From positions 12,684,580 to 12,748,579 of the forward strand of contig JASSKH010000011.1 in the NCBI GenBank assembly GCA_031763025.1: a DNA stretch of 64,000 nucleotides. Reading direction: 5' to 3'. Positions within the stretch are counted from its first letter, which is position 1; each line of letters starts with the position of its first letter. A program made the position numbers and the translations under genes. The DNA comes from Macrocystis pyrifera (Eukaryota > Sar > Phaeophyceae > Laminariales > Laminariaceae). Of the stretch, positions 1,814 through 60,100 are shown piece by piece. The notes under the pieces were generated by a model. It was not told the DNA's origin, did not search any database, and saw nothing but the letters and a program-made list of their open reading frames with translations.

Positions 1814-2006
1814 GTGAGTACGAGTACATACAGTAGTGCACAACAACAGCGGTAGCAGCAGCAGCACACCTAGCGGCAGCATCCCAATCGATGCTGCCGC
1901 AGCGTATCAGTGGGAAGGGGGGGGGTGTTGTACCCGGCCATTCGTGTTTCACTCTTCGTACAGTGTTGCCTTTTGTCCGATCTTGTTGTACATACGACAG
2001 TTTTGC

Positions 2007-2040
<34 letters not shown>

Positions 2041-3327
2041 ACTGCTACTGCTACTGCTACTGCTGCTGCTGCTGCTGCTGCCTTTTCACCACGTTGTGCG
2101 TAGCATGTATACTGCTGGGAGTACATTTGTCTCTTGTACCTTGGGCGTTGCAGTGTGTACCAGTTTGTATGACAATGCTTGGCGTACTCCATTAGCTGCG
2201 CTGTGGGTGTTGCTGCCGTACCCCAGACCAGACTCGTCTCGAGGCCCCTCTGTGCTCTACCTGGTGTCCTCTATGCTCTGCCTTCCCCGGGGGGGAAGAA
2301 GCTGCTTGCCCTTGCTTCTCTCTTTTTAGTTCAGTACGAAGTCGCCTGCTCTAACTACAGTATTACGGGGGTCCATAGTTTATAGGATCTATGGTGTGCA
2401 TAAAAACCTATATGTTTACCTATTTTTACTAACAAAAATTGGTCCCATTAACTATGGACCCCCGTGTAATAGGATACTTCGAAAGCAGTTCGACACTTAG
2501 CTTTGCAAGCGAACATTGTGGTGCTTCGTTGTTGCATCTCTTGATCCCGCTCTCTCTCGAGTTCTTTGCTATCTCTTGATCCCGCTCTCTCTCTCCCATT
2601 CTCTATCTCTCTCTCGGTCTCTTGCTATCTCCCTGTCTCGCTCTCTATCATATCCTTGCTGTCCTGTCGCGCTTTCTCTTCTCCCTCTCTCTCTCACACA
2701 CACTCTCAATCTCTCTCATTCTCTCTCTTCTCGCTGGTCTAGCTGGGGGAATGCAACGAGCGAATGGGAGCCCAGGTCGCGAAGGGGGGACGCAAGGCAG
2801 ACTCGGCCATGCTTCAGCGGTGAGTACTTGCTATTAGTAGCGTTTTGTAGGCCGGTACTCTCGCGGAGATGAGGGAGGGTGGCCGACGTTGGGAGGGGGG
2901 GGGGGGGATACTCACCATCATTCATGGTCGTAGTCGTATGACATGACCATAGACCCTCGAACCGCTGCAATGTCGGGACAAAGCACGTCGGGCTTTCGCC
3001 GACCAGGCAGACATTGCCCTGCACTAAACGCGGAGCGCCGTGAGGTGCTCGGCGAGACGCGTGAAGGGTGAGCTGCATTCTATAAGTACTCGTAAGAACC
3101 GCTTGTGAGGATGGGGCTTGCGCCAAGAAGTAAAAAATAGGGTAGGAGGGAAGGGGCGAGATTTTTTGCGCGAACCATTTACCTGATGTTGAGGTTATAT
3201 TGGCGCGGAACAAGTCAATATCCCCCCCCCCCCCCCATATATATTATATATGGGTTGGGTTGGCGTCGGTTGGCAACGACACTGTAAAACATGCCCCTCA
3301 CTACGTGAGCTAGACATCCAGGGTACC

Positions 3328-37200: not shown

Positions 37201-40200
37201 ACTACGGATGGTGCCGCCACAGTAGGGCGTACTACAAATGCTACTGCTGCACGCTACTGCTGCCAATCCTACTGTTTGATAGTAGCGGTAGGTCTACTCC
37301 TGACGTCTCTTTTGCACTACTACTTTCTGATCCTACTGTTACGGGGGTCCATAGTAAAAATTGATTAGCGGAAAGCGCGAGAGCGTGAGTTAGCTGTACA
37401 TTCGATGAAAATCGACGAGCATTGGGAATGCTGAACCCTAGGCGCGATAAAAACTAAAAGGCACGTACCGGGGGGGAGAAGGGACGACACCTGTGACCAC
37501 GGCTTGTCCAGAAGATCATCGAGGGTAAAACCTCCTACGAGTGGGCTGGGAAGTAAAAAAAAGTTAACAGGACCTACGGGATACCTAAATACCTATATAT
37601 TTACCTATTTTTACTAGCTATAGTTGGTCCTATTTACTATGGTCCCCCGTAATACTATTCATAGGGCGTACTACAATCGCTACTGCTGCATGCTGCTGCT
37701 GCTGTCAATCCTAGGGTTTGATAGTATTTGTTAGGTCTACTCCTGACACCTCTTTTGCACTACTATTAATACTTGCTGCTACTACTACTATTCATACTTT
37801 CTACTACAGCAGTACTACTGCTACTGCTACTACTACTACTACTACTACTACTACGACTACTACGATATACTACTACCTCGAAGACTACTGCTGAGGGTGC
37901 TAGTACTGATGGTGTTGCCAGAACGGTACCCCTGTAGAGCATACTATTACAGGGGGCCATAGTAAATGGGACCAAATTTTGTTAGTGAAAATAGGGAAAT
38001 ACATAGGTTTTTGTGTGTACCGTTAGTGCTATTTACTATGGTCCTCCGTCATACTGTACCTCTACTGCTGTCTCTTGTACTACCACTACCATGATATACA
38101 GTTTGGACTTCAATATTAGGACCGTTGAGGCGTTCCTATGAACACGAAACGGCCATTCCATTTCCGTCGTAACGTGGTGCGTATTAACCCCTCCAGTACT
38201 GCACAATTCCCTTCTTTTCAAAAACTACTTGGATAAAGAGTGCAGCTGTTTTTCGCATATACCAGCAGTAAAAAGTACAAAGGTCAAGCGCTTTCGACCA
38301 TATCACCTCGAACCAACCCCGCACGAGCATGACAACTTCCTCTCCCCCCCCCCCCCACCCCCCACCCCTTTCCCCCTTTTCTGAAACGCCTCTAGCTCTC
38401 CACCCTTCAAGCCGACGAAGAAAAAAAGGCATCCTCGGCCCGACCCCCTCGCGGCATCACCACCACCACCACCACCGCCAACACCACCGGAACTCCCACC
38501 GTCACCATCCCCACCGCCCTCTCCCCCACCTCTTCCACGGCCATATACTCCGGTCAAAACCCCCCCCCCGCCCCGGCCTTTCCCGGTCCCCCCCTGATCG
38601 TGGAAACCCTCGCGGGGGCGGGCGCGGGGGGGGGGCGCGGCACCTCGGGAAGAGGGGGGGGGGGGAGGGGTGGGGAAAGCTAGGGGGGGCGCGATGAAGT
38701 TGGGTGTCAAGCGGGGGAATCGCTGGACGCGTAAACCTGCTAGGCCTGCGTCGCCGGCGGCTAGCGCTCGGGCGGGGTGGGTGACAGTGCCCGTCGAGAC
38801 GACGGGACCTGGTGGGAACGGTGGCGCGGCAGGAGCCGCAGAAGGAGGACAAGGAGAAGGTGGGGCGGGGTGGGGGAGGGGAGGTTTGTATATATATATA
38901 TATGTGTTTTCTATGTTTTCAGTCGTATTTCTGCGATTTTTGTAGTTTGTGTTTTCGTCTTCGTGTGCTGTTGTGTTTTTGTGTTGCATGCTGCGTAAGG
39001 GTTTCAGCATACCTGCGAGGCAAGAGAGGATCAAGCCTGTTTCCAATGGCGTTTTTCGCTGTGGTTGTTGTTGTTGTTGTCCCGTTTTGCTTTCGTGTTA
39101 CCATCTCTTGTTCTTGCTCTTGCTTCTTAGCTCTTGTCCTTGATGATACGCTTGGTATTTTTTCATGACGTTTTTATGTTGTTTTTGCCCTTGCTCTTTT
39201 TTGTTTCTGTGGTTCTTGCTCTTGCTCCTGTTCTTCCTGTACGTATTGTTATTCTTATCCTTACCTTTGCTAAGTTTGGCCCTTCTCGTTTTCGTCTTGT
39301 GTTTGGAACGTTTCTGTGGTTTTGCAGTTTTTCTTTTCATGGTTATTGCTCTTGTTCTCGTTCTTCCTATGGACAACGTACATGTTTTGCATGTTTGTTA
39401 CTACTGTAGTTTTGTTTTCGTTCATTTTTATCTTCCTTTTTGCACGTATTATTTTTTCTATCCTCACTAATTTTTAGTATTGTTGTATTTCTGTTCTTGT
39501 CCCTGCCCTTGACCGTTTTGTTTCTGCAATAACTAGTTCCAAGTAGTTTTTCCTAAAAAATATTGGTACCGTTCGGAAGGGGATAGGTCGTATCAGCTTT
39601 TTTTTTGCCGTCGTTTTTTTTTTTCTTCTTCCCCCCCGACGTCAACATGGTCATACGACTACGGCCGTGCATGAGATCGAGTATTCCTATCGAGTACACC
39701 CCCCCCCCGACGTCAACATCGATATGCACTTCATCACCGCTAGCAGCGGCGTCATGTAGATGTATTTTAGTGTCGAGGAATCGTACGTGGACCATCATGC
39801 ATTTTTTGTTTGAGGACCCCGAAGGGAAGAAAACGCCATCCCTCTTTTGTTGGGAAAACCGGCTCGTCTTGTTAATTCTGTCCTTGGTCTTTTTGCTCTT
39901 TCAAACGTTTTTTTTTTCTTCATCATTGTTCTATAAACGGTAGATTTATTTCTCGTGGTGTTTTCGTTTTTGTTTTGCTTTTGTTTACGTATTGTTTTTT
40001 TGTTTTGCTCAAAATCACCAACCAGCGCCTCGCCCTTTTCCCCATCTGCAGAAACACGACCACCGCCGTCGACATCGATACCCACTTCGTCACCCGTGGC
40101 TGCGGCGTCGGCGCGCCAGGCGCACAACCGAGGGGTTAGACCAAGCGTACACCCCCTCAATGCCAATGCTCACTCCTTCTTCACCGACGAGCTGGAGTGC

Positions 40201-40928
40201 CCGTGGAGATGTGGGGGGTGCCGCCGGTTCACTCGGAGCTGCGGCTGCTCGAAGGGCCTGCCGGAGCAGATGCGGAAGCAGGGGGGGCGTTCGAGTGTCC
40301 GGTGAGTGGGAAGGGAGCGTGGAGGGGGGGGGGGGGGGGGGGGGGGGGGTACTCGATAGGAGAGATGTACTCAATCTCATGCATGGCCGTAGTCGTATGA
40401 CCATAGACCCTCGCATCCCTACAGTGCCGGGACGGAGCATGTCGGGTTTTCACCGACCAGGCAGACATTGCTTGCACCAAGCGCGAAGCGCCGGGAGGTG
40501 TCCGGCGAGTCGCATGAAGGGTGAGCTGCATCCTACTAAGAACCGCTTGTGAGGCGGACTTGCATATGGATGACAGCTTCAATGAGTTAGTTTTAATTTC
40601 CGGTGTGGCCACTTCCAGAGACAGCAATGGGAGTACTATGTAACTGCCTCTTGGGTGCCGTACCTTGAACACTACGTGATACGACCAATTCCCTTGTGCA
40701 GAGTAAAGGTTCTTTACTTCGCACAAATGATCTAACTAGACGACCAGCTGTGGGCGACCGCCAAAAAAAACGCAAACAAACAAACAAACAAACAAACAAA
40801 CAAACAAACGGTACCCTGGATGTCTAGCTCACGTAGTGAGCGGCATGTTTTACAGTGCCGTTGCCAACGACGCCAACCCAACCCATATATAATATATAGA
40901 AGGGGGGGGGGGGGGAGGGGGGGGGGGG

Positions 40929-41014
<86 letters not shown>

Positions 41015-44000
41015 GCCTGTGTTGCCTGCATATCCGCAATTGGTATGCAGCGGTAGGACGGTTGGATATTGTCAGTGCAGTAGACGGCAGGGCCATATTG
41101 GTAGAGTATGTGGTACAGCAGTATATGGCTTGAAAGCTCTAAAGGGCCTTTCGAAGCAGATGCGGAAGCGGGGGGGGGCGCTCTAGTCTTCGGCGAGGGG
41201 GGAGATCGGTGTCGCCTGTTTTGCCTGCATGTTGTACACCTGGTACACAGCAGCAGGACGGTGATTGGTGCGGCATACCAATGCCAGCCGGTGGATACCC
41301 CGGTTTAAGAGCGCCCAAGATTAGAGCGGTCAAGAAAGCGGCATGTCCCGCCTGCCCTAAAAGCAGTATATTGCCCACGACGCATAAGAGCGTTGTGTGC
41401 TGTAGTTCAGAGTGCCCCTTCTGGCCTTTGTCACGGGCCTCCTTGATCAACCACCTTATTAATTATTAATAGGGCAGCAGTCTCTTTAGATCAGATTTGC
41501 GGACGAACTACTCATAATTCGAGTGCTTTATCCCCAATACGGGACTGAGGTACGAAAAAGGTTACTTCGGGGTACCCACTGCTGTATACCTCTATTACGG
41601 GGGACCATAGTAAATAGGACCTACGGTACACACAAAATACTATATATTTACCAATTTTTACTAACAAAATTCGGTCCTATTTACTACGGTCCCCCGTAAT
41701 AGTAAATAAATATACCTACAAGTGTGGTGATCCTCAGCCTGATCCGGCCCGTTTTTGGTCGGCGGATCTCTCCCGCCTCTGACCGTCTTTCCGGCGCGGT
41801 TTCTCCGCCGGGGCGTGCCCCCTCCACGCTTGAACCGCCCGGCGTCGGAGGATCCTCCCGCTCAGCGCCGTCGCGCCCGCGCGAAGCCTTGACCTTGAGA
41901 TCTACGAAAGAATCTCCGAAAATATCTGCCCTGTCAGTGGTTTGGCCAATGGTCTCTCGACAGAGTGTATGCATTCGCGTGGTTCTTTCCGGCACGTCCT
42001 CTCCGACCTCTGACCCATGAGAAGGGTCAGCTTCCCGGCCGGCGTTGCTATTGTGGGGGCCTGCGCGGGTGGCTGTATCTGGGGTATATCGATGGAACGC
42101 CCCGATAGCACATGCCACCCAAGCTCAGTTGAGAACTGCCATCTATAAAATGTTTTGCCCCCCCGGGGATATATGAGAGAGATATTGCATGCCACCTACA
42201 GCCAGCAGCGCTTATGATGGCCAGCAGCAACTATGGTGTGTACGCTAATCTTATCGTACAGCGGCCGCTAGCTGCAGTGGAGCCGTACTACGTGGCTGCG
42301 GAGAATCTGATGTACAGCTACATACAGCTACATGCAGCGGTATTGCTGCTACAGCAGCTGCTGCGACGGCACCTTCCTACGGAGCTGCCGTGTCGGTCAT
42401 CGCGTGCTCCCTGAGTCAGGAGTTAGTTTTCACCGCCTACTAAATTTCCGCCGCCTTTCGGTCAATCGGGAAGTAATCGGCAGCATTCTGCCGCCTTTTT
42501 CCAACGTTCATGGAGTGTGGAAAGCACGCTCTCGATCTGTTGGCATCGAGTCTGAGCCCCCCCTCCTCCTCCTCTACGTACGTGTTACGCCCATCACGCA
42601 AGTCTGTCTGCGACCGGCGGCCGTCCAGGACGCCAGCGTAGCCCGTCGTTCCTTATTAAATAGGACCTACGAAACACACAACAATCTATATATTTCCCTA
42701 TTTTTACTAATAATATTTCGGTCCTGTTTACTATGCCCCCCGTAAATAGGCGGAAGTATCAGGACCTCTTTGGAATTAATTATAAAAGACCGAACGATCC
42801 TGATGTGCCCGCCCTTCAGAGGTCGGACTACACGGCCGGAAATATTAGGACCGTTTAGACATGAATATGAGTACTCACGGGTGCTTCTATTTATCCCCAG
42901 CAGCTCGATGTTTCCTCTTGCTTTTCCAAGAAACATGGGAAATATTTTCCCAAGTATGGCAATTGAACAGGGGGCAAGATATCAGGAATGCCTATGTAGC
43001 ATTCCAACAGTTGGAGAACCAAAAAAAACGAAAAATCTGGATTACGTACACCTGGTCTGTATTTATAGCGCAAAAACAAAATGTGGAAAATAGAAGGATT
43101 TTGGACAAAAAGTCCTTCGATGATGATGGCTCTGATGGCTCTAACGGGTGTCTTCCCTTCTCCCCCGCTATTGGTTGATTTTCTCGCCGCACCCGGCAGG
43201 TTCGAACGTTTCGCCTGCCGAAACGCCTCCTGTATATACTGCAAACCCCCCGGTCTGCCACTCTTCATGGCGGAGTGGGCTGTTTCCTCGTCAAGGTGAG
43301 CCAATCGAATAATTTTTGTATATACGCCAGGGTATTAAGTGCTGTAGTTCGAAAAAAAAAAAAACGGAACGAGGTGAGCAATCGTGATGATGGACATGTG
43401 CCTGTATTTTTTTTTTTTTGTATTTATTGCCATCATGAAAAGGGATATGAAATGGAAATAGTTTCAGAACACAGGTTCATTGGACCTTCTCCTTGTTAGT
43501 CTCCTCTTCACCATAGTAAACAGGACCAAATATTGTTGTAAAAATAGGGGAATGTATAGGTTTTTGTGTGTACCGTAGGTCCTATTTACTACGGTCCCCC
43601 GTATATAGATTGTTCGTCTCGGGGGGTCAGTTGCGCACTCTCTGTCCCAGTAACTAACTGCTGGTGTCTTTGTTGCTCTCTCTGTTTTCCTCAGTTTTTT
43701 GTTGACTTTCGGTACTTTACGTACGTTGACTGCTGATGTCCGGCTTCTCGCGTCACGATCTGATTGTGCAAGAGCCGCATAGTTTTTTACAGCGGTAGGA
43801 GAGGCACTACGTGTACGTCAGCTGTGAGTGGGACCGACTGAGCGCTTTTGGCTTTCAGTTGATGCCGGTGCTCAACTTTGCGAGCCGTGTGACAGTAGTT
43901 CGGGCGCGCTTGTTCTGTGCTCCGTTTAATTTTCGTTCGATGTGTTGATGTGGCGTTTGTGAACTCGACTCGGTTTCACAAAGCTGTATGTATGGTGGGC

Positions 44001-47000
44001 CTTTCGCGCGTGTCCTACTGTGCATTCAATGTGCACCTTGCGTGCACGCCTCTTTCCATGTGATTTTTGCGGTGAAAACCTTGACCAATCAGATTCAAGC
44101 TGAAGGACGGACAGCCCCCGCCGGAGCTAAAGGCCAAGAAACCTACCGTCGCTTCACGATGGGAGAGGGTGAGGGAACAGTCACACCGGGAAAATTAAAC
44201 GAAAATAAATAAATCTAATCACACATGAAGCAGACCACGATGTGGATAATCTATGCATATATCCTCTTAAGACCAATTATTATGGGAAAAATTTGAAGGG
44301 GTCTCAGAGCTGTTTTTTTTTTTGCCGACAACCGGCGATTTACTCGACGGGACTGTAAAAAACACCGGTAGACTCCTCAGGATGCTCCCCATAGTTTTCC
44401 GAGAGCTTTTCTCGAGCACTTTTTTTCCGTTTCTCCAGAGTCGTAGTTGGACTGTTCGTCCATATTTCCAGTTCTGAGGACATCATGATTTTTCATCAAA
44501 AATCTTCGAAGATCCAATATTTCTGGCCCTCCAGAGAAAACTGATTGGCTGCTCCCAAAAATTAAATTAGGACCCTGGAGAAACGGGAAATTGTTCCTGA
44601 AAGCTCGCAAGAAACTACGGGGAGCATTTTGAGGAGTCTATCGGTGCTTTTGGCTATCCCGCCGAGTAAAACGCGTATATTCGGCCAAAAAAAAACAGTT
44701 CTGAGAGCTCAGAAATAATTTCCCATAATATTACAAACTAATCACACAGTGACCAAATCATGATCTACAGCAGTGAATCATCTAAAATTAGTGGATCCTT
44801 TTCGTACCAACAATAATGAAACATCACGGTGGACCTACCTGTAGACCATGTGCAGTAGGTCCTCTTAACCAATATGACCGCACATCGAACACGTCACGAT
44901 CTGCTGCGGAGATCATTTAGATCCCCTAACAAATCTAACCACGCATCGGGCAGAGGATGATTTACAGTAATGGAAAGAGCCTTGATTTAGCATGATGATG
45001 ATGTGCGCGAAAGCCGTGTCGTACAGATAGATGGATCAGATAAAATACTATTACGGGAGGCCATAGTTAATAGGACCTATGGTACACATAAAAACCTATA
45101 TATTTCCCTATTTTTTTCTGACAATATTTGGTCCTATTTACTATAATCCCCCGTAATATCTGCAGTAGATCGGATATCATAGATCCTCTAACACATCGGA
45201 CTGACTGATCACGATCTGGATCACTTAGATCCTCCATCAAATATAATGCAGCATTGGACTGATCAGTTTGATCAGTTAGATCACTTGCTTTGTATAGAAA
45301 ATCTAGATCCTCTATTACGGGGGTACATAGTTAATAGGACCTATGGTATACATAAAAACCTATATATTTGCCTATTTTTACTATCGAAATTTGGTCCGAT
45401 TAACTATGGACCCCCGTCATAATTGCCTTTCCGAGATGTTGTGCAACAAATGGCCTTTTATGGCGTGATGTGCGCGAAAGCCACGTACAGGTAGATAAAA
45501 AAGATCAGATACATCAGACAGATCGGGTAGATCGGGTAGATGAGATAGATCAGATGCACCAGACAGATCAGATAGATCAGATACATCGTATACATCAGAT
45601 GTATCATCAAATAGGGATCTGATGTGTCCGATGTGAAAAATACCAACATGTCCCTAAGAAATGCCCGGTATAAGGATCGTTTATGGACAAGGGTACACGA
45701 AAAAACAAAGACACCCCACTTTTTGTTTCTAGTCCCAGACAGGAAATTCAATTTTATACTACTAATAGATTCAAGTACAACCAAAGCTGACATTTAATTT
45801 CTGACAAAAATCCCAAACCCGCTATTACGGGGGGCCATATATAATAGAACCTACGGTAAACACAATAACCTATATATTTACCTGTTTTTACTAACAATGT
45901 TTGGTCCTATTTACTATGGTCCCGGGTTGGACGAACGTGCTACAGGCGGCGGTTATACCGGTACTCGTTGCCTGGCCGCCCCCTGCGCCAAAAATCATTC
46001 AAATAAGAAAAGCCAAAACAGGCCTTGGCGCGCCCGAAAATACTTGGAGACCGAGGGTTGACCGATTGACTGACCGCCCCTCCACTACAAATAGTATATT
46101 AAGATGCTAGGAGACCGCGGTTTGACCTCTTGACTGACCGCCTACTACACTAAATAAAAGGCATTAAGGTGCGAGGAGACCGCGGTTTGACCACTGGACT
46201 GACGCCCCGACAATAAAGATAGCATACCAAGATGCTAGGAGACCGCGGTTTGACCCCTTGACTGACCGCCGTACACTAAACATGTCACAATACCATGCTA
46301 GGAGACCGCGGTTTGACCGCTTGACTGATCGCCCCTACACTATTAATAGTATATTAACATGCTAGGAAACCGCGGTTTGACGCCTGGACTGACCGCACCT
46401 ACACTAAAATCAGTATTATATAGCCCAAAGAAGCCTTGACGAGCCCAAAGATGCTGGGGTTTGATATCTGGGTACATCCAGAGTATATACCCTACTGTTC
46501 ATACCCGGATTGATACCCGGGTACACCCAGAGTACGTCGCTTGTTACGTACACCCTTGCTGATACCCAGGTACCAAACCTGGTTATGTTGGTAGTACCCA
46601 GGTTGATACCGGGGTACATCCGCAGTAGATACCCGACCACCATACCCGGGGTGATACCCGACTGCCGTACCCGGCGTGATACCCGGGTACATCCGGAGTA
46701 TTTGCCCGACTGCCATACCCGGGGTGATACCCGGGTACATCCGGAGTATATACCCTACTGCCGTACCCGGGGTGATACCCGGGTACATCCTGAGTATATG
46801 CCCGACTGCCATACCAGGGGTGATACCCGGATACATCCGGAGTAAATACCCGACTGCCATATCCGAGTAGATACCCGGGTACATCCTTAGTACGTTCCCA
46901 GCTGCCATACCCGGATAGATACCCGGGTACACCCAGAGCATGCTCCGTAATATTGCGGGAGACAATAGAAATCAGGACCCATTATATACTCAAAAAACTA

Positions 47001-47090
47001 TATATTCCAATATTTTTACTGAGCACACGCTTGGTCCGTGCCCTGCTGTAATGCGTGCAGGAGGCCATTCCGGACGGACGTGTGAGCGGG

Positions 47091-47123
<33 letters not shown>

Positions 47124-50100
47124 CGGGGGTACGGAGGACGCGGTCAGCGGCGAGGCAGCGCCTACAGACGCAGCGGCGGCGGTCGCGGCGGCAACAGCGG
47201 AGGCGCTGGAAATGTACAAACGGCAGCGGTGAGGGGTTTAGTTTTGTTTCGCGTTTTCGGTTTTTTGTTTTTTTAATCAACCGGACCGCCCGTGATAAAA
47301 ACGCCACGAGATCGTGGTACTTGTTTTGTTTTGAAATTGTTTGATTCGGTTGGGGTTGTGGTTTGGTCTGGGTTCGGTTCGGTTTGAGTTCTGAGTATTT
47401 TCAAACTTCAACCTCAACCTTACCCTACCTTTTGGAGACCTCGTAGCCTTCCGCTTGTCCTCCAGTTGAACCTAATCCTTTTACCATTATCCGTCACATT
47501 TCGGAAGAAATCGACCTTCGACGCGTGCTAGCGCCCCCGGGGTATTGACTAAACGCACCTGTCTCTTCTGAGGCTACTCACTTTATTATAGTACAGAAAC
47601 TCTATAAATTCGATAGTTGAGATGAGAAATGTGTGCGTAGTCCGATTGACGATCAATCCCACGGCCCATGGCCCCCAGGGTATACGTGACGAAAACTACA
47701 GCATTGCGTAACACAAGTGGGATTCTCTCAGTTGTGTCGTCAGTCATGGATAGGTTTTGTCAAGACGTTCCGCGGACTGCAGTGCCGCTTTGGGGACAAC
47801 CCACTCCTAAAATGGTTGAACTTCAACTTGAACGTCCGTCCGCCTTGCCCTAGACTTCAGCTTCGCCCTTCCCCTGAAGTTCAACGTAACCTTCGACTTC
47901 AACTTGAACCGAACCCTTGCCCTTGGCGCTTCGTGGACAGACCATCTTGATCTACAGCATTGAAAGGACGGGACAATGTTTGCTGGGGTATTGTATATTC
48001 CGTCTAGCCTTTGCCGTTTATTCACCCTCGTAACGTAAAACCTTCCCGGCTTCCCGAACACATCTCTTTCGCGTCGCTTTCCGTTCTCTCATCGCGTAAC
48101 TTATTTTTTGTGTCGTCTCTCGTCTCATTCTGCGCATCGGGGTCGCTTGGGGGGGGGGGGGGGGTTCTCCGTCCCTTTCCATACGACGGTGATTGCGCCG
48201 CGTCTTCCATACGACGGTGATTGCGCCGCGCTTTCCAAACGGTGGTGTTTTGGACCGACCGCCTATCAAACGGCGCTGATCACGCCGCGCATTCCAATCG
48301 GCGCGCCGTCCGAACGGCGGTGATTGCGCCGATCGCGTACTCAGGAGACGGCTGGGCGCCAGCGAACGATGCGGAGTGTGCATCGGTTGCACCGCACCCA
48401 ACTGCGGCAACTGTTGGTGAGCTACCTCCTACTCGGGCGACGAGAGAGATGGGTGCATGTAGGGGGGGAGGTGGGGGGGGGGGGCGTACTCATTTGTTGC
48501 TGGCCTTAGTCATTTTGACCATTGATCACGCGTCCCTTTCGAGACGGAGCACGGTTCCTACACCTAGTAAGAGACACCTGCAACATTTTGGGGGCTCAGT
48601 ACGTTGTTTCCATATATTATATAGAAACGTGTTGCTAATTTTTAGTTTAGTTATCCCCCTTCCTGTTTGGCCGCCTGTGGCCACCATCTATCTCCTATTA
48701 CGGGGGACCATAGTAAATAGGACCAAATATTGTTAGTAAAAATAGGTAAATATATAGATTTTTATGTATACCATCGGTTCTGTTAACTATGGTCCCCCGT
48801 AATAGGATAGCGATCGTTTTCTCGCTGCTGTCTACTGTAGTGTACCAAGCTCCCTCATCTCATCTAGGCGGGGGGGGGCGTGCTCATTATCATGCATGGC
48901 CGTAGTCGTATGACCATAGACCCTCGCATCCTTACATTGCCGGGACGGATCACGTCGGGTTTCCACCGACAAGACAGACATTACTGGGGGAGGGGAGGGG
49001 AGGCGGTAAACGTGCGTGAGAGGGAGATGGATGGGGCGCGAGGACCGGGAGGGGGGGGGGGGGGCGGGGGGCGGGGGGGGGGGGGGGCGTACTCATTTGT
49101 TTGGACCGGGGGGGGTGTGGAGAGTGAGGAAGGGGAGGTAGAGGGGGAGACCTTTGGTTGGTTCGTTTGTTGGGTCGGCTGGTGGTGTTGTCGTCGAGAG
49201 TGGTCTTGACGTTGAGGCCACGGTGGCCGAACCAAACTACCCACCGGACAAAATCAATCCAATCAAACCCGAAGGGGAATCCAATATCAAACTCGAACCC
49301 AAACCGAAGCAAATCGAACCAAACCAAAACCAAACACAATCGTACCAAAAACTTTTCGAAACACAAAAACAAAACCCAAACCCACAGCCCAAAATCAATC
49401 CCCAACACTCCAAAACACAAAATGAGGCCCACCTCCGAGCCTAAAGCCCCCAATCAAACCCAAACACAAAACCCGAAATCAGACCCAAAACCCAGACGCA
49501 AACCTGAACCAAAATCCGAAAACAAAAAACAAAACCAGGGGCTGTTCCCATCGTGTAGAGTCCGGCGAGTCCGGACATAGGAACCAGCCGTGTATCGAGC
49601 GCTATCAACCTAAAACCAATACCAATATCAAAATCAAACCCCAACCAAAAACCCAAAAGCAAACCCAAAACCCGAACGCCAGCACTAATCTAAACCTCAA
49701 CCCAAACCAAAACCGAAATCAAACCAGGGGGTGCTCCCACCGTGTGGAGTTCGGCGGGTCCGGGCAAAGGAACCAGCCTTGCATCGAGCGCTGGTGTCGG
49801 GTGAAAGCGGCCCAGCGCGCGTCCGACAAGGCGGACAGAGCGAGGCGGCAAGGGAGCAGCACCAAGCGGCCACTGGATTCGAGGTGGGGACGCGTGCTGA
49901 CTTTGACGCGCCCGAACTGACGGGATCGCGGTTTGACGCCATGACAGACCCGCCCGGTACACTGGAACTGGTTAATTAAGGAGAAAATAGATCTTGACGC
50001 GAGCAAAATGACGGGACCGTGGTTTGACGCCTTGACTGACACACCCGGTACAGTGCAACTAGTATATTGAGGAGATTATATATCGTGATGCGCCCAAAAA

Positions 50101-53100
50101 TGACGTGACCGCGGTTCGACGCCTTGACTGACCGCCCCGTACATTGAAACTGATATATTGAGGCGAAAATAGACCTTGATGCGCCCAAAATGACGGGACC
50201 GCGGTTTGACGTCGTGACTGACCGCGTCTTTACGCTAAAAATGGTGCGTTAGGCCAAGCTAGGCCTTGACGTGCCCAGAACGACTGGACCGCGGTTTGAC
50301 GCCTTGACTGACCGCCCCCTACGCTAAAAATAGTATATTTAGCATTGACGTACCCGATATGACCGGACCTCGGTCTAACGCCTTGACTGACCGCCCCATT
50401 GCCCTAAAACTACTGTGTTAATAGTATACCAGACTGATTGTAAGTATAAGGTACTTTTAGTCACATTGCGGCCATCGAAATGTACCTTATATTTTTTCGG
50501 CTGAAAAAGGCTTGCCTCCTAACGTGTGTGTTGTCGAGCGATCGGTCGATGAATACTTCCACGCGTTCGACAGATGACGATGTATCTGATCTATTCTGAT
50601 CTATGTCTACAATGAATCGTCTTAGATCGTTAGCTGTCGTCATGAGAGGTTGGGCAGGATCTGCAGAGTACATATCCAACCCATGGGGATACATGTCCTA
50701 GATCACGCAGGTCAGTTGCCCCCCAACCGGCAACATGAGCTAGATGATACAGACCATGCATCTATGTGCCCTGAGATATCTACAGTATATAGATCATGCA
50801 TCAAGTGGGAATGATCTGTAGATGAGTTGTCTGAGGTGTGAATGGCCGGTCCGCTAGTGTACGGGAGGGGTCGCTCGCCATGTCTGCGTATACTCGTACG
50901 CATCATACTACCGCAGTAGAGTCTATGTTTCGTTGATGTATGTTCCTGGTATTATTTGGTTGCAAGTGATGCGGGACGGTATACCACAGATCGTTAGTAC
51001 CGTTTTCCTTATGGACTTGTATGATACTGCAGCTGCCGTTCACGCTACCAGGTAGGTAAGTCGTTTGTGTGCACTTGTCTATTTTCTTCCATCGAGATGC
51101 ACTTTTGTTACAGCCTGTTTTGTGACCACAAGGCAGGACTTGAGGGAAAATGAGCTAATGCGATAACACCATCATCACATATATATATATATATATATAT
51201 GTATCAGGCTCGTCGCAGCCGAACGGACTACATGTAGTATTTTTTAATGACGTGATGCAGCGCATGACCATGTCCCTCACCCCCCCCCCCGCCCACCCTC
51301 GCGCGCGTCCCCCCCCCCCCCCCCCCCTTATTTCTTTACCCGTGTTCCCGGCCCTCGAACGACAACAATATGATCAACAACACCAACAACACCAACAACG
51401 ACAACAACACCGCTAACACCAACAACAACATCAACATCAACGTACCGCCACCATCATCAACAATGTACCATCATCATCTACAACCCCATCAACATTCAAC
51501 AACAACACGCCATCATCATCTACAACCCCATCAACATTCAACAACAACACGCCATCAACATCTACAACTCCATCAACACCGCGCCACCATCAACAACACC
51601 AAACCAACAACCCGAAACAATTACAACCCGCGGTGTACATGCCTACCATGCCTGCCCCTGATATACATGATATATTTCAACCAATCAGCGGCGAGGATTA
51701 CGAAGGAGAAGACGGAGCCGCATCGCCCGCCGAAGGCAACGGTACTATCAACGGAAATACCAAGGGGAACATCAACCGTAACGGTACTAGTTCCGCCGCC
51801 AAGCGATTCCGCCGCGCTCGCCGCGCTGGCGGCGTCCCTACCGGCGGTCGCGGATCAGGCGCCATATCGGCGGCGTCGGTGGCGGCTGCGGCCGCTGCAG
51901 GAAGGAGTTCCCCCGTCTTCGGACCCGGGAGAGACTCTACCCTCGCCTTTGTCTTTGCTGGAGAGGGACGCGATGGGGGACGTGGTGCTGGCGGTGGTGG
52001 TGGTGGTGGTGGGGTTGAAAATAACCGCGAGGCTATGCATGTGAGCTGGAGGGAAGGGAGGGAGGGAGCGGGGTTAGGGCGGGTGCACTCGACATCGTGC
52101 ATGGCCGTAATCGTACGACCATAGACCCTCGCATCCCTACAATGCCGAGACGGAGCACGCCGGTTTTTCACCGAGCAGGCTGACATTGCGTGCACCAAGC
52201 GCGGAGTAGGGGAGGTAGAGACGGAGGGGGGGGGAGGAAGAAAGGAGGAGGGGTGATGGGAGGGACGGATACCGTTGTACCCGACGACTATTTCACTACA
52301 AAATGTTTCTTTAATGGGATTGTGTGTGGGACTTAGCCTCAGAAATTTCTGAGGAAGTGCTAGGGCAGGTATTTAGGTCCTCCAGTGAAGATCCCCTTTA
52401 CAAATGTTACCCCTAACAAGAAACGCCTCTCATCCCCGCCACCCTAACCCTAACCACATCGAAGGGCCCCTAACAAGACACGCATCTCATCCCCGCCACC
52501 CCAAAAGTAACCAAATCGAAGAACACATTTAAAAAAGGGCTGTTGACGAATCGGGTCAAAACTCGCGGGTCGGGTCGGATGGGGTCTCTCCCAACCCGAC
52601 CCGACCCGACCCGGCTCAGTGAGTTTTTGAAGACCTCTTGACCTGTGAAACACCTCCGTTAAGAAGAGCCTGCATACATCACCGTCAAATCGCATCAACA
52701 TCACATCACATTTTCTACATCACATTTAGCAAAATTGCGGTGTACAGCATCACCTGATCTTTTTTGTTTTGATCTTGAAAAAAAAAAAAACAAACAAAAA
52801 CAAAAAACAGGTGTTCAGTGAATCCGCGGGCATAGTTTCCCCCGCCAGCGGCTGCGGCATGAGCGGCAGCGGCATCAGCGGCAACGGCATCGTCGTCGGT
52901 AGCAGTGGGGTGGGTACCGGCGCCGATGGCGGCGCCGGTCACGCAGGGGGTAGCGTTAGCAAACGAGGCCGACCCTCAAGCACCTCCAAAAAGTCGCGCC
53001 TGAAGGACCTACTCAGGAAGGGTTACCGCTGCCTCGCCCTGCTCGAGGAGGTGGGGGCGCAGCGCTTGCTAGAGGCTTCCGCAGACGTGTTGGTGGTAGG

Positions 53101-53960
53101 GGCGCGGGGAGGGGAGAGGGAGGCGACGCGGAACGGGGAGAGGGAGGAGGAGGAGGTAGGGGGGGGGGGGGGAGGGGGGGGGGGGGGGGGAGGGGCTGAC
53201 TTGGCGCGATGGACAGCTTGTGCTTGGGCAGGCAGTGAGGAGGCGGCTGGCCATGGTCGACCCGTTCCATGATGTGAGTCGGGGTTTCGTGGGGGGAGGG
53301 AGGAGGGGGGAGGGACGAGGGGGGGGGGCGAGTTGAGTATATGCTTTGGTTGGTGGATGGTGGTAGCGGGTTACCGTTTGGAGGGGCGTCGGCTGCTCGT
53401 TGCGATCGCCGCGACGGCGTGCTTTTGGCGTTGACGGGCAGGTTCACGTTTTGATTGACACTGAGATTGTAGTTTGGGTTAGGGTTAAGGTCCACCGATT
53501 TCCGTCCTACCCTACCCTACGCCACCCTACCCTACCCTTCTCTGCCCTTCCGTACGCTACCCTACCCTACCCTAACCCTACCCTACCCTACCCTACCCTA
53601 CCCTAACCCTAACCCTAACCCTACCCTACCCTAACCCTACCCTAACCCTAACCCTAACCCTACCCTAACCCTACCCTAACCCTAACCCTAACCCTACCCT
53701 ACCCTAACCCTAACCCTACCCTAACCCTAACCCTAACCCTAACCCTACCCTAACCCTACCCTACCCTAACCCTAACCCTATCCCTACCCTACCCTACCCT
53801 AACCCTAACCCTAACCCTAACCCTAACCCTACCCTAACCCTAACCCTACCCTGCGGTATTCACAAAAAGGAATGCAGCAGCACCACCACCAAGAGCACGA
53901 ACAATGGCAATCGAGACAACGCCAATAACGAAAGCAAAATCAGCGTCAGCGGCAACACCG

Positions 53961-54003
<43 letters not shown>

Positions 54004-54815
54004 CCCGGTCAACAAAGGGATTAACAGCGGCAGCGGCAGCGGCAGCGGCAGCGGCAGCGGCAGCGGCAGCGGCAGCGGCAGCGGCAACAGCGGCAGAAGC
54101 GAGGAAGTCGCTGGCGGCGCGTTCGCTACTGGCCCGCCCTCACCTAGCATGGCGGGAACGCTTCCATCTTCTCCTCGGCGTCCTGCTGCTGCTGCTGCTG
54201 CTGCTGCTACTGCTGATGCCACTGGTGGTGCTACTGGTGCTACTTCTGACGCCCCTACTGGTGCTACTACTGCAAGAAAGGCTTTTGATGCTCCTGCTGC
54301 TGCAAGGGCTGGTGGTACTGCCAGTGCTACTACTGCTGCCAGTGCTACTGCTACTGCCAGTGCTCCTGCTACTGCTGCGGGTGCGGTCAGTGTTGGCAGC
54401 GATGGCGCCGGTTTGCAGCCGTCGGCTCGGGCAACGGAGGAGAAGGGGAAGGGACAGGGGGGGCTTAAATCATCCGACACGCCCAGAGTTGGGGGCGGGG
54501 GTGGGGGTGGGAATGCTTTTGTCGGTGGCGGTGTTAAAGCAACGAAAGGAGGGGGCGCTGGGAGGAACGGCGGGGGAGGCGCGGGAGGGGAGGGGTCGAA
54601 GGATGGCAGGCGCGATTCAAAGTGAGACTGCCAGCCCTGAACATTAATTCCATTGGTGTCGTCGACGGCCGACGCGATTGACCATATTTTACGGCATCAA
54701 TTTTGACTGCGAGGGAAGTAGATATTTTACCAAACAAGAACAATATTTTCGATTTTCGTTTTCATCGGAAACGCAGTTCTCAATTAGAAAAATTAGAAAA
54801 ACCGGCTGTTTGTTG

Positions 54816-54847
<32 letters not shown>

Positions 54848-56109
54848 GATGGTGGAGTTGGTGGTGTTGATTGATGTTGATTTTGGTGCTACTGGTGTTG
54901 TTGCTGTTGCTGTTACTGCGGCTGCTGCTGTTGGTTATCGCCTATATTGGACAACCTTGCCCCCCCCCCCCCCCACACGGCACCTGCCCACAGAACAACC
55001 TTACCTCCGTTCGCACCGTAAGAGTTGCTTCAGTGCTGCAGCGCATTTCCACTGTTGTATTTTTTCATTTTCCATCAGATATATATACATATTTGCGTAT
55101 TGAACGCCCAACTGCTGGAGGTGTCTCCATTAGAGGTAGGAGCGGTGCTCCGTCCCGAAAGGGATGCGTGGTCAATGGCCAAATGACTGAGGCAAGCAAA
55201 CAAATGTGTACGCCCCCCCCCCCTCTCCCCCCTCTCTCTCCTCCTCCTCCTCCCTCGTCCTCCCCCCCTCCTAGCGTTCACCACTTCTGGACGATTATAT
55301 AAGGATCGCTTGGTCTTCATATTGATGTATGAACGATCCTTACTTATAGAGACAGCGGTGACGCGCAAGATTGCCCCAATTCCTCCAACGATTTTGACAG
55401 CTGATCTTTTCTTGAAAACGGGGAAGGCGCAAACGCCGAGCGAGGCAGGCGCCTGTGGACTTACATCTCGGCGATATGTTCCCGACCCCGCGACCCATTT
55501 TTCGCTGTGTGTGCGTGCCCCCTCAAGGCTTTTAGATTTGGAGAAAACTCGGCTCGGAAAAAATTGTCCCGCGGTGTGTCGAGTCTTGAGCGTGTCGTAC
55601 GGTATCACCTTCAGATGGGTATGTTGTGTTGATCCTAGCGTTTGCTCTTTTTTTTTTTTTTTTGTTCTCTCAATCCCATTTATTTTCCCCGCCCCACGTA
55701 CTCTCCCGCTCCCGCCCAGTATCAGCTCGGGTCCGGGCTCACATGGTGGGGCGCTCCACCCCCCTTCCCCACAACGCTCCGTGCCTTGTTTTTTAAGGCT
55801 TGCGGGACTGAACATTTTCTTCCCTCATCTACTCGCGTCGAACTTGGCTGACTCCCTTGTGTCTTGGCCAATCGTCCCTCTGTCTCCTACCGTCGTTCCG
55901 TTCGTGTCCTGCGTTCGACCCATCCCCTTTCGCCTGGCGTCCCCGCCCGGGACGACAGGTACATCGGGGTACGCCGGCAGGAGTCTCGGTGGGTGGCGCA
56001 CATCACGCGCCCTTCCGGCGCCGGAGAGACTATATTGGGCGTGTTCGACGAGGAAATTGATGCGGCCAAGCAGTACGACAAGTATGCCAAGGGTAGTAGT
56101 AGGTTGGGT

Positions 56110-56147
<38 letters not shown>

Positions 56148-57070
56148 CTGCTTCGGAGAGGTGGGCGTAGGGTAGAATAGGGTAGGGTAACGGTAAAGGT
56201 ATAAGGGTAACGGTAACGGTAACGGTAAGGATAAGGATAATGGCATGTAAAGAGGAGCGCAAAGGTAAGGGTTGCGATAGGGGTAGCAACAAAGGTAAGG
56301 GTAAGAATAAGGGTAAGGGTAAGGGTAAGGGTAGGGGTAAGGGTAAGGGTAGGGTAGGGTAGGGTAGGGTAGGGTAAGGTAGAATAGAGAAGGACAAGGG
56401 TAAGAGTAGGGGTAAGGGTAAGGGTAAGGGTGAAGGTATAAGAGTATACTGGTAAGGGTAAGGGTAACGCGAATGGGTATAACAGTAAGGTAAACGGTAC
56501 GGGTACGGGTACGGGTAAGGGTAACGGTAAGGGCAAGGATAAGGGTAACGGTAAGGGCAAGGATAAGGCTAATGGCATGTAAAGAGGAGCGCAAAGGTAA
56601 GGGTTGCGATAGGGGTAGCAACAAAGGTAAGGGTAAGAATAAGGGTAAGGGTGAGGGTAAGGGTAAGGGCAAGGGCAAGGGTAAGGGTAGGGTAGGGTAG
56701 GGTAGGGTGGTCGGGGGGTGGGCCGGGGGGGATTGAGGGGGTTGGCTGTGCTGTGACTGTGCACGTGCTTGCTGTGCCTGTAAGCTTCCCTGTATTTGTA
56801 TACGTACCTTCATTTTTTTTGTGCTATTCTTCTTATCGGTCCCCTTATGCGTGTGTTTCCGCAGATGTGGCTGGAAATCCCCGACGTGAACTTCCCCAGG
56901 CCAACGACCAACTCCCGCTTCAGGAGCTCGTTCGGCTTGGCCGGTACCTTGACACCACAGCAGCAGAAGGTCTATCTGCAGCAACAGCAGAAGCAGAAAC
57001 AAAAGCAGCCGCAGCAGGAGCAGCAGAGGCAGAAGCAACAGCAACAGGAGAAGGAGCAGCAGCAGCACAA

Positions 57071-57119
<49 letters not shown>

Positions 57120-60100
57120 GAGGAGGAGCAGGAGCAACAGCAACAAGAGCAGAAGCAAGAGAAGCAGGAGCAGCAACAACCCGGCTCTACCGCCACATCA
57201 ACCACCAACACCCAGCGACCCTCAGTACCGTCATCAGCACCAGTAGCAGCAGCAGCAGCAGCAGCAGCAGCCCCCTCCTCAACGGGCTCGACCAGCGGTG
57301 GCAACGAGTCGACCTGTCTGACATGCTCTGCCGCCAACGCTCCCCCTAACGAGACCGGCGGTTGTCGCGCGTGCGAGCTCAAGCGGGCGGGGTCCGGCGC
57401 GGCAGCGGCGGTTGCAGCAGGGATGGTGGTGGGGACCAAGGGGAAGAAGAGGGGAGGAGGAGAGAACGAGGAGGTGGAGGAGGAGGAGGAGGAGGTCGTG
57501 GAGAGTGCTGCGAAAAAGGTAAGGTTGAGCTATGTTCTGGTGTCAGTTGTAAAAAGCTTACGCGCAGTCACGCGAAAGGGTGGATGGGTGGGTAGACCCC
57601 CCAAATTACCTTTCGGATGACTCGCTCCGGGGCAGGGGCGCGGCAAAAGCGCCGTTATATGGATTTCATAACAACCAAACTTGGTAACATAGGACTACCC
57701 CCCATCCCCTCCCTTGCCCCCCCTCCCCCCTGCTCTTTAACCCCCCCCCCCTCCCCCCCCCTAGTATATCCCTGGTATATATAGGTTGGGTTGGCGTCGG
57801 TTGGCGACGACGCTGTGAGACACGCCCCTCACTATGTGAGCTAGACAGTCAGGGTACCGTTTTTTTTTTTTTTTTTTTTGGCGGTTACCACGGCTGGCGG
57901 TCAAGTTAGATAATTTTTTGTGCCGGGAGAAAATTCCCTTCGCACAAGGGGGATGATCGTATCACGTACGTAGTGTGTATAGGGTAAGGTACCCACGAGG
58001 CAGTTACATAGCAAACCCATTGCTGTTTCTGGAGGAGGCCACGCCAGAAATTAAATCAATTCATTGATGCTGCCATCCATATGCAAGAATATCCGCCTTT
58101 AAAGCGGTTCTTAGTAGGATGCAGCTCACCCTTCATGCGACTCGTCCAACACCTCACGGCGCTTCGCGCTTGGTGCAAGCCATGTCTGCCTGGTCGGTGA
58201 AAACCCGACGTGCTCCGTCCCGGCATTGTAGGGATGCGAGGGTCTATGGTCATACGACTACGGCCATGCATGATAATGAGTACACACCACCCCCCCTCCC
58301 CCCATCCCCCCCCGCGCTGCCTATGGTTATACGACTACGGCAAGGCATTATATCGAGTACACCCCCCCCCCCTATATTTTATATATAGGTTGGGTCGGTT
58401 GGCAACCCCACTGGAACATGCCGCTCACTGCTTGAGCTAGACAACCAGGGTGCCGTTTTTGTCTTTTTTGGCGGTCGGTCGCAGCTGGTGGTCGAGTTGA
58501 ATACGTGGTGCGGGGTGGAGAACCCTCACTCCGCACAAGGGGAATGATCGTATCACATAGTGTTCATGGTAAGGCACCCAAGAGGCAGTTACATAGTACT
58601 CCCATTGCTGTCTCTGGAAGTGGCCACACCGGGAAATACATGAACTCATTGGAGGCGGGATCCATGTGCAAGTCCCCCCCACAAGCGGTTCTCAGTAGGA
58701 TGCAGCTCACCCTTAATGCGACTCGCCGAACAAACAGCTGACGGCGCTTCGGGCTTGGTGCAAGCAATATCTCCTTGGTCGGTGGAAACCCGACGTGCTC
58801 CGCCCCCGCATGGTAGGGATGCCAGGGTGCATGGTCATACGACTACGGCCATGCATGATATCGAAACCCCTCCCTACCCCCCCCTTCCCCCACCCTCCCC
58901 CCGCCCATCGGTCCCGCAATCGCGCCGCTACGTTTTTATCTTGAAGGGTGTTGGTGTCGATGCCATGGAAGTGGACGACATTTCCGGAGGACCGCCGTGC
59001 TCTCCCAGCCCGATAGGCCCACCACCGTCTTCGCCCAAACAGGAACGGCCTCTTGCGGTATTGTCTGGAACCCCCCCCTCGAAATTTGCCCGAGGTGGGT
59101 CGTTGTCCGCGACGATGCCTGGGTCTGCGCGGCAGCTCGAGCCCGAGCCTTCGCGAGAGAGGGAGGGGGGGAGGAGGAGGAGGAGGAGGAGGAAGGAGAG
59201 GAGATGGTAGGCGGGGGGAAGGAGGGGGAGGAGGAAAGGGAGGGGAGGAGGAAGGAGGAAGAGTTGGGGGAGGGGAGGGGGGAGGAGAAGGAGGAGGAGG
59301 AGGAAGAGGAGGAGGAAGACGAAGAGGAGGAGATAGATGGCGTCCTCTTGGTACAGTACCTTTGGGGAAGGGAAAGGGGAGGCGGCGGAAGTGGCAGCGG
59401 CAGCGGGTGCGGCAGTGGTGGCGGCGGCGGCGGTAGTGTTAGGGGCCTTGATAGTCACCAGGACGGGAAGGAAGAGGAGGAGGAGGAGGAGGAGGAGGGG
59501 GAAGAGGAGAAAGAAGAGAGGGGTAAGAGGGGAAGCAACAGCGAAGCCGCTGCTGCTGCCGTCGCCGACAATGGTCCCTTCTCCTCGTCTTCTCCTTCGC
59601 CTCCTTCTGCCGCGGCGTCGCCAACGCTGAGACTGGCGGTGTCGCGAGACCTACGGCGGGGATATCTCGCCCAGAGCCTGGCCAGGGTTGTCGGCGCGGC
59701 CGGAGTGATCCGGGAAGCGCGGCGCGCGGGGTACTGCCGTGGCGACGGCGGTGGCGGCGGTAGTGGTGGTGGTGGTGGTAGTAGCAGGGGTGGCGGTGGT
59801 GGAGGAGGAAGTGATGCTAGTGGGGAGGGTGGTGGTGGTGGCGGGGGTAGGGGTGGGAACGGGGGTGGAAGGGACGATTCCGCGGGTGGTGCAAAGGGAA
59901 TGATGGACTCGGCTGAGGCCGGCCTGAAGGGTGGCGGGGAAGGGTGGCGTGAGGCGCAGGAGGAGTCTGCCGCCGCCGTGGAAGCGCTGGATGCGCTCGA
60001 TAGGGGCGTCGAGGAGCTGTTGGATGAGGTGGGTGGGGGTTTTGGTGCCTTTGTCTGGCCGGGGGGGTGGCGGGGGCGGTACTCGATCTCATGCTTGGCC

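What the first reader, a model, noticed from the sequence alone, without database searches (positions are those of the whole stretch)
48345..57518. A CXXC zinc finger and an AP2/ERF domain in what looks like one gene
The two-exon CXXC finger (all eight cysteines, FGGSG loop) is followed, through phase-matched exons at 51689, 52811, 53193 and 53870, by an AP2 domain whose first residues are completed across a splice (DSK|YIGVRR). I know of no standard family that pairs a CpG-sensing CXXC finger with an AP2 domain. If real, it would link reading of CpG methylation to sequence-specific DNA binding.
Basis: partly seen in the sequence, partly recalled or inferred. Interest (0 to 1): 0.88.

Follow-up and report, generated by a model that had tools for sequence, protein, structure and literature searches.

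The report
DNA-binding histone deacetylase of brown algae
The giant-kelp stretch looks like the front half of one long gene that joins two kinds of DNA-binding domain to a histone-silencing enzyme, suggesting a repressor that finds its own DNA targets in algae reported to lack the usual DNA-methylating enzymes.

Summary
Confirmed, and larger than reported. The window is giant kelp (Macrocystis pyrifera). Both CXXC exons are real (Pfam 40.3 bits). The AP2 domain is divergent (22.1 bits, under the cut-off) but matches plant AP2 domains by profile. A predicted Ectocarpus protein (P0001) carries CXXC and AP2 in one chain.

The new part follows. E. fasciculatus P0003 runs from the AP2 into the first part of a class II histone deacetylase, shown by its overlap with Ectocarpus P0004. 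In kelp the matching exons lie in order on one strand, 37062 to 83176, ending in a stop 19 kb beyond the window: Cys-rich domain, CXXC, AP2, coil-like linker, HDAC. Best reading: one 46-kb gene for a self-targeting deacetylase.

Methylation reading is not supported: brown algae are reported to lack DNMT1, 3 and 5, and the CXXC loop has QRNQ where the five solved CXXC domains I saw aligned have Lys/Arg-Gln. AP2-HDAC proteins are described in oomycetes; adding CXXC looks new.

Open: no transcript evidence, no single protein spanning all domains, four in-exon frame changes plus one ill-phased donor in the kelp assembly, and one Ectocarpus annotation shows the HDAC alone.

The parts
37062..37145 (+). 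exon 1, start Met, MPAGDTGLGEEGREWPVDFAAGVMWARQ
   Evidence: aligns to first Met of P0002, E 6e-8; followed by GT
38396..38864 (+). likely exon 2, low complexity, GC donor in the model, boundaries uncertain; one in-exon frame change in a poly-G run near 38672
   Evidence: KRGNRWTRK.. matches P0002, weak on its own (E 3)
40120..40301 (+). first part of conserved N-terminal Cys-rich domain (ECPWRCGGCRRFTRSCGCSKG)
   Evidence: tblastn E 2e-19 to P0002; all 8 Cys of the domain shared with Ectocarpus
43200..43295 (+). second part of Cys-rich domain (FACRNASCIYCKPPGLPLFMAEWAVSS)
44093..44168 (+). exon RFKLKDGQPPPEL..
   Evidence: E 0.002
47061..47235 (+). probable exon EAIPDGRVS.., low complexity, 3' end uncertain
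   Evidence: only
48345..48416 (+). CXXC zinc finger, first exon
49528..49605 (+). degenerate tandem copy of the second CXXC exon inside the intron (SGESG for FGGSG, last zinc Cys lost)
   Evidence: tblastn E 1e-5; DNA alignment
49728..49883 (+). CXXC zinc finger, second exon
   Evidence: tblastn E 3.5e-18 to P0001
51689..52040 (+). exon with SGEDYEG and basic KRFRRARRA stretch
   Evidence: phase 2 junction, SGEDYEG shared
52811..53095 (+). exon with KRGRPSSTSKKSRLKDLLRKGYRCLALLEEVGAQRLLEASADVLV (conserved middle region)
   Evidence: tblastn E 1e-16; the 42-base intron at 52905-52946 is probably an alignment artefact
53193..53280 (+). middle region, second exon, LTWRDGQLVLGQAVRRRLAMVDPFHD; exact start uncertain (53160)
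53870..54621 (+). low-complexity linker exon ending RRDS(K); split and shifted
   Evidence: open frame; its end is, weakly anchored
55959..56091 (+). AP2 domain, main exon (YIGVRRQESRWVAHITRPSGAGETILGVFDEEIDAAKQYDKYAK); donor one base out of phase
   Evidence: tblastn E 1e-17, 74% identical to P0001; Pfam AP2 sub-threshold; profile match
56865..56929 (+). AP2 domain, end (MWLEIPDVNFPRP); exon's 3' end uncertain, frame open to about 57620
59285..59837 (+). linker exon with IDGVLLVQYLW and AVSRDLRRGYLAQSLARVVGAAGVIREARRAG
   Evidence: 27 of 35 identical in the latter; P0003 matches in the genome lie here and in this locus alone
59943..60028 (+). linker exon WREAQEESAAAVEALDALDRGVEELLDE
63323..63403 (+). 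coil-like exon AEAKEQKADLAQLELIAKKAFSAKSAL; the gene goes on beyond the window through HDAC exons to a stop at 83174-83176 (window numbering; C191 position = 12684579 + x)

Best explanation
A single brown-algal gene of about 46 kb (window 37062 to 83176) encodes a class II histone deacetylase with its own DNA-binding front end: a Cys-rich (probably zinc-binding) domain, a CXXC finger, a conserved middle region, an AP2 domain, a coil-like linker, then the catalytic HDAC domain. Shown here: the domains, their order on one strand, and their conservation between kelp and Ectocarpus, with the HDAC motifs kept. Inferred: that it is one transcript; that CXXC and AP2 bind DNA and hold the enzyme at chosen sites, where it removes acetyl groups from histones and represses genes; that the coil-like part (judged by eye) may dimerise it. 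CXXC would be a general CG-type DNA contact, AP2 the more selective one.
For: Overlapping Ectocarpus predictions tile the gene: P0002 (Cys-rich + CXXC), P0001 (CXXC + middle + AP2; E 5e-74 to the kelp model, from which I had left out most of the low-complexity linker), P0003 (AP2 + linker + first part of the HDAC), P0004 (HDAC, 224.4 bits). P0003 and P0004 overlap at 140 of 155 identical, and the overlap reaches about 77 residues into P0004's Pfam HDAC match (103-431). In the kelp stretch 36901-83400, 23 of 23 tblastn pieces at E<=1e-3 lie on the + strand in protein order, one being the degenerate exon copy. Spliced alignment score 4156, against 494 (reverse strand), 582 (reversed protein), 2114 (halves swapped). 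Of 34 introns in the model 20 are GT-AG and well anchored on both sides, two of these flanking a doubtful micro-exon; the program allows only GT/GC-AG introns and penalises stops, so 33 of 34 GT-AG and the absence of stops are no independent proof. Linkers are conserved: middle 49 of 76, coil-like part 100 of 150 identical. Kelp HDAC: 221.1 bits, 291 of 328 identical to Ectocarpus, with PGHH, DVHHG, SAGFDA and EGGY aligned to HDAC6 (P0004). A genome scan with the HDAC family also rings here (C191:12757303 and 12759186).
Against: No transcript was seen. No single protein in hand spans CXXC to the whole HDAC; the chain is pieced from four Ectocarpus species or strains, three of the proteins being partial. 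Pfam did not list Hist_deacetyl for P0003 itself at E<=1, nor AP2 for P0001. P0004 is annotated as an HDAC alone with about 34 unrelated residues in front. The kelp assembly has four in-exon frame changes and one ill-phased donor in this gene. AP2 is below Pfam's cut-off, and the CXXC loop is unusual. No other brown alga appeared among the hits.
Confidence: 0.75

Rival explanations
1. Two neighbouring genes, a CXXC-AP2 DNA-binding protein and a separate class II HDAC, run together by gene prediction in some Ectocarpus genomes.
For: P0004 in Ectocarpus sp. CCAP 1310/34 is annotated as HDAC alone, on the longest contig of the four (128 kb). Introns between AP2 and HDAC are long (up to 3.3 kb). 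Pfam alone does not see an HDAC in P0003.
Against: P0003 runs on from AP2 into sequence 90% identical to P0004's HDAC start; the exons between them are conserved in kelp (coil-like part 100 of 150 identical); P0004's homology begins inside the coil-like stretch, which looks like a truncated model.
Confidence: 0.15
2. The kelp copy is a decaying pseudogene.
For: Four in-exon frame changes and a mis-phased AP2 donor; a dead duplicate of the second CXXC exon.
Against: 89% protein identity of the HDAC to Ectocarpus (291 of 328). One frame change lies in a long poly-G run, three beside runs of 3-4 equal bases, and the assembly was Canu plus Racon from PacBio reads, with no short-read correction named in the passages I saw (PMC10498591).
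Confidence: 0.07
3. It is one protein, but CXXC and AP2 do not select DNA: they are scaffolds or protein-contact modules, and the enzyme may act on non-histone targets as class II HDACs such as HDAC6 do (recalled).
For: CXXC loop is QRNQ where KDM2A, KDM2B and FBXL19 have RMKQ, CFP1 KIRQ, DNMT1 RSKQ; AP2 is sub-threshold and has Ile/Leu where the plant pieces have the Arg of YRGV; nearest solved HDACs include HDAC6.
Against: CXXC 39 of 51 and AP2 45 of 60 identical between kelp and Ectocarpus, and the loop is the same in both, so the domains are kept for something; basic, NLS-like stretches (by eye).
Confidence: 0.25

Closest known systems
Oomycete class II HDACs with PHD, two AP2 domains and C-terminal Med27 (PMC5112689, section 14 read)
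   Same: class II HDAC with AP2 in front, in another stramenopile group; possibly the same old lineage (inference)
   Different: no CXXC in the text (word search); here one AP2 found, no PHD or Med27 by Pfam. Sequences not compared
CXXC-bearing chromatin enzymes: DNMT1, KDM2A/B, MLL1/2
   Same: a CXXC finger in one chain with a catalytic domain (recalled); finger closest to DNMT1
   Different: catalytic domain is a deacetylase; CpG-contact loop lacks the Lys/Arg before Gln
Plant AP2/ERF factors (WRI1, ERF096, AtERF1)
   Same: AP2 domain by profile match
   Different: divergent; here in one chain with an enzyme
Class II HDACs (HDAC6, HDAC10, HDAC4, HDA15, HDA1)
   Same: catalytic domain and motifs
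   Different: those carry no CXXC or AP2 (recalled); in a 2010 survey Hist_deacetyl was one of 4 of 25 chromatin domains not found with a DNA-binding domain in human genes (PMC2993927, passages)
Apicomplexan AP2-HDAC3/MORC repressor complexes (recalled, not looked up)
   Same: AP2 proteins bringing an HDAC to DNA
   Different: separate proteins, class I HDAC

Membership tests
CXXC zinc finger (Pfam PF02008) | eight zinc Cys and curated score | tested here: met
   40.3 bits kelp; 32.0 and 31.7 bits Ectocarpus P0001, P0002; cut-off 26.5
CXXC zinc finger (Pfam PF02008) | FGG motif followed by Lys/Arg-Gln loop of CpG binders (role of the loop recalled) | tested here: not met
   FGG/YGG present, but QRNQ; RSKQ, RMKQ, KIRQ in DNMT1, KDM2A/2B/FBXL19, CFP1; MLL, MBD1 and TET1 were hits but not seen aligned
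CXXC zinc finger (Pfam PF02008) | binds unmethylated CpG | not testable with these tools
   needs binding assay
AP2/ERF domain (Pfam PF00847) | curated Pfam score | tested here: not met
   22.1 bits kelp with both exons, 16.2 bits P0003, none listed for P0001; cut-off 33.3
AP2/ERF domain (Pfam PF00847) | profile similarity to solved AP2 domains, with GVR, RW-A-I, LG-F, AA--YD, NFP positions | tested here: met
   hhalign probability 94.6%, E 6.7e-8, 3 against 3 sequences; five of six PDB hits at E<=10 are AP2/ERF proteins
AP2/ERF domain (Pfam PF00847) | three-stranded sheet plus helix fold, DNA binding | not testable with these tools
   structure prediction switched off
Class II histone deacetylase | Hist_deacetyl domain | tested here: met
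   221.1 bits kelp, read with X at two frame changes; 224.4 bits P0004; cut-off 27.9
Class II histone deacetylase | catalytic motifs and nearest relatives of class II | tested here: met
   motifs aligned to HDAC6; by molecule name the 60 of 136 PDB hits shown include HDAC6, 10, 4, 7, HDA15, HDA1 and no class I enzyme. No tree made
Class II histone deacetylase | deacetylase activity | not testable with these tools
   needs assay
Oomycete PHD-AP2-AP2-HDAC-Med27 type | AP2 N-terminal to HDAC | tested here: met
   one AP2 only; one-gene status rests on predictions
Oomycete PHD-AP2-AP2-HDAC-Med27 type | PHD and Med27 | tested here: not met
   Cys-rich domain gives no Pfam match at E<=10; P0004 gives Hist_deacetyl only at E<=1
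Oomycete PHD-AP2-AP2-HDAC-Med27 type | common descent with the oomycete proteins | not tested
   oomycete sequences not in hand; no oomycete protein among hits

The most novel reading that the evidence does not exclude
Brown algae, reported to have lost DNA methyltransferases and PRC2, silence genes with a one-piece DNA-guided deacetylase: CXXC (re-tuned by its QRNQ loop) plus AP2 read the site, and the fused class II HDAC writes the repressed state. It would be an ancient stramenopile AP2-HDAC to which a DNMT1-like CXXC was added, and it would stand in for the recruitment chains other multicellular lineages use. (Lowered from 0.30 to 0.27 on checking, for the report of low 5mC in Saccharina seen.)
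Probability: 0.27. Interest if true: 0.92.

Novelty: new variant of a known kind. Interest (0 to 1): 0.8.

Why it matters
How brown algae, an independently evolved multicellular lineage, direct repression to genes without DNMTs or PRC2 is an open question (setting from PMC13076208, section 6). A deacetylase that carries its own DNA-binding domains is a direct, testable candidate: its binding sites would show where it acts. HDACs usually reach DNA through partners (recalled), so a fusion of DNA readers with the enzyme also supports, as a natural experiment, the idea that AP2 proteins and HDACs work together in distant lineages. And it asks why a CXXC finger is kept in a lineage reported to have lost its DNA methyltransferases.

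Tried and rejected
Tried without result: Pfam and PDB for the N-terminal Cys-rich domain (nothing); structure prediction (switched off), so no fold search; six-frame family search of the genome for AP2, which at E<=10 found four weak exon-sized matches elsewhere and not this one, from 7 candidates (none at E<=0.001), so AP2 counts there are unreliable; the like search for CXXC missed this split finger too; Pfam on ten long frames from elsewhere in the window (nothing above cut-off); paper searches for CXXC with AP2 or with HDAC, whose listings and the passages I opened named no CXXC-AP2 or CXXC-HDAC protein; most listed papers were not opened.


Full report
Where it is. The window is C191:12684580-12748579 of a 537,376,219-base genome in 223 contigs. 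The giant-kelp paper gives 537 Mb and 223 contigs (PMC10498591, passages read), so I take it as Macrocystis pyrifera.

The observation. The two CXXC exons (48345-48416, 49728-49883) join in phase and give a finger with all eight zinc cysteines, 40.3 bits against a cut-off of 26.5, closest to DNMT1 among solved structures. The AP2 exon (55959-56091) is weaker: 17.4 bits alone, 22.1 bits with the next exon, cut-off 33.3. Five of its six PDB hits at E<=10 are plant AP2/ERF proteins, and a profile of kelp plus two Ectocarpus sequences matches a profile of three plant AP2 pieces at 94.6% probability, E 6.7e-8; both profiles are small. I accept it as a divergent AP2.

One gene in relatives. A search of 5.8 billion proteins with the kelp model gave 3 hits among 8000 scored candidates, all Ectocarpus. 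P0001 (Ectocarpus sp. 12, 744 aa, partial) has the CXXC and, in the same chain, DSKYLGVRKQGSRWVAYIIRPSVGGETNLGVFDEEVDAAKQYDKYANMWLKTPEVNFP, the counterpart of the kelp AP2, although Pfam does not list AP2 for it. P0002 (Ectocarpus sp. 8, partial) adds the front: a start Met and a Cys-rich domain. P0003 (E. fasciculatus, partial) adds what follows the AP2. A search with P0002 residues 168-400 returned only P0002 and P0001 among 1494 candidates. No other brown alga was among the hits, and I do not know how many are in that database.

The deacetylase. A search with P0003 residues 100-664 returned 3 of 8000 candidates: itself, P0001 and P0004. P0004 is a histone deacetylase (224.4 bits, residues 103-431) and overlaps P0003's end at 140 of 155 identical residues, up to its residue 179. 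P0003 thus contains AP2 plus roughly the first 77 residues of the HDAC match, though Pfam run on P0003 itself listed only AP2. By name, P0004's solved relatives are class II: HDAC6, HDAC10, HDAC4, HDA15, HDA1, with bacterial relatives (60 of 136 hits shown).

The kelp gene beyond the window. I fetched 39 kb downstream. The remaining parts of P0003 and P0004 follow in order on the same strand. A spliced alignment with my own program, guided by the pieced Ectocarpus protein, gave one model from the Met at 37062 to GGIDDD and a TGA at 83174-83176, the same C-terminal residues as Ectocarpus: 1734 residues, 992 of 1576 aligned positions identical. Controls: 4156 for the true pairing, 494 for the reverse strand, 582 for the reversed protein, 2114 when the two halves of the protein were swapped. 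Of 34 introns 33 are GT-AG, but the program allows only GT/GC-AG, so this is partly built in; 20 of 34 are GT-AG and well anchored on both sides, two of them around a doubtful micro-exon; many of the rest sit in low-complexity linkers. Identity by part: Cys-rich 72 of 95, CXXC 39 of 51, middle 49 of 76, AP2 45 of 60, coil-like 100 of 150, HDAC 291 of 328. A whole-genome search with P0003 found 6 places at E<=0.01, all in this locus. The genome's HDAC scan lists 30 exon-sized matches, by my count at 11 loci, this one among them.

Weak spots. Nothing here is transcript evidence. The long chain is pieced from four Ectocarpus species or strains, three of the proteins being partial; P0004 is annotated as an HDAC alone, with about 34 unrelated residues in front of a cut coil-like stretch. 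In the kelp assembly this gene has in-exon frame changes near 38672, 67015, 74691 and 74753, and the AP2 donor near 56092 is one base out of phase. The first lies in a poly-G run, the others beside runs of 3-4 equal bases, and the paper describes PacBio reads, Canu and Racon, so I think them assembly errors, but reads were not checked. There is also a degenerate copy of the second CXXC exon in the intron.

What the parts should do. The HDAC keeps the PGHH, DVHHG, SAGFDA and EGGY motifs (P0004; the kelp model shows the same letters; that these are catalytic is recalled), so it is probably active. The CXXC keeps its zinc sites but has QRNQ in the loop where KDM2A, KDM2B and FBXL19 have RMKQ, CFP1 KIRQ and DNMT1 RSKQ. 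Another kelp CXXC locus, on the same chromosome, keeps KQ and RQ in its two fingers. So CpG binding cannot be assumed. Kelp and Ectocarpus share the odd loop, which points to a kept function rather than decay. The most likely mechanism is a deacetylase held at DNA by CXXC and AP2 and repressing there; each functional step is inference.

Setting. A 2026 survey finds no DNMT1, DNMT3 or DNMT5 and no PRC2-specific subunits EED and SUZ12 in brown algae, with DNMT1 in the outgroup Schizocladia (PMC13076208, section 6 read). Against a total lack of 5mC stands a methylome paper reporting about 1.4% methylated cytosines, mainly CHH, in the kelp Saccharina japonica (PMC6916402; only the start of its abstract in the listing). 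Either way a CpG-methylation reader would have little to read. A DNA-aimed HDAC would instead offer a way to place repression. The 2026 survey's main text does not hold the words HDAC, deacetylase, CXXC or AP2 (its figures were not seen).

Known relatives. Oomycete class II HDACs with PHD, two AP2 and Med27 are in print (PMC5112689, section 14 read), so AP2-HDAC is not new in stramenopiles. Ectocarpus class II HDACs are listed by number in PMC3145265 (table passage); I saw no domain make-up there. In a 2010 survey, Hist_deacetyl was one of only 4 of 25 chromatin domains not found with a DNA-binding domain in human genes (PMC2993927, passages). My paper searches (open-licence PMC papers only; listings, few opened) named no CXXC-HDAC or CXXC-AP2 protein. 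I file it as a new variant: an AP2-HDAC with a CXXC finger.

Noticed in passing
window 53506-53852: Telomere-like CCCTAA/CCCTAC array inside the intron before the linker exon of this gene.
   Followed up: no
window 49528-49605: Degenerate tandem copy of the second CXXC exon; SGESG replaces FGGSG and the last zinc Cys is gone.
   Followed up: partly
L005, window numbering 68314, 68433, 68523: Short weak matches to the exon piece RLHAVPEDRLEQ (E 9.7, 1.7 and 0.002) ahead of the next HDAC exon, perhaps repeated local exon duplication in this gene.
   Followed up: no
L016 (C191:1314000-1323999), minus strand, 1317554 and 1321134: Another kelp locus with two CXXC fingers over the cut-off (RQ and KQ loops), nearest solved relative KDM2B; its partner domains were not looked for.
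   Followed up: partly
window 40120-43295: Conserved eight-Cys N-terminal domain (CPWRC..CRNASCIYC) with no Pfam or PDB match, perhaps a new zinc-binding module.
   Followed up: partly
window 52958-52990: KRGRPSSTSKK in kelp looks like an AT-hook (recalled motif); Ectocarpus has SRARPSSRSRR, so it is not strictly kept.
   Followed up: no
window 1686-2270, minus: Open frame with a sub-threshold match to Pfam Salyut (16.6 bits, cut-off 27).
   Followed up: no
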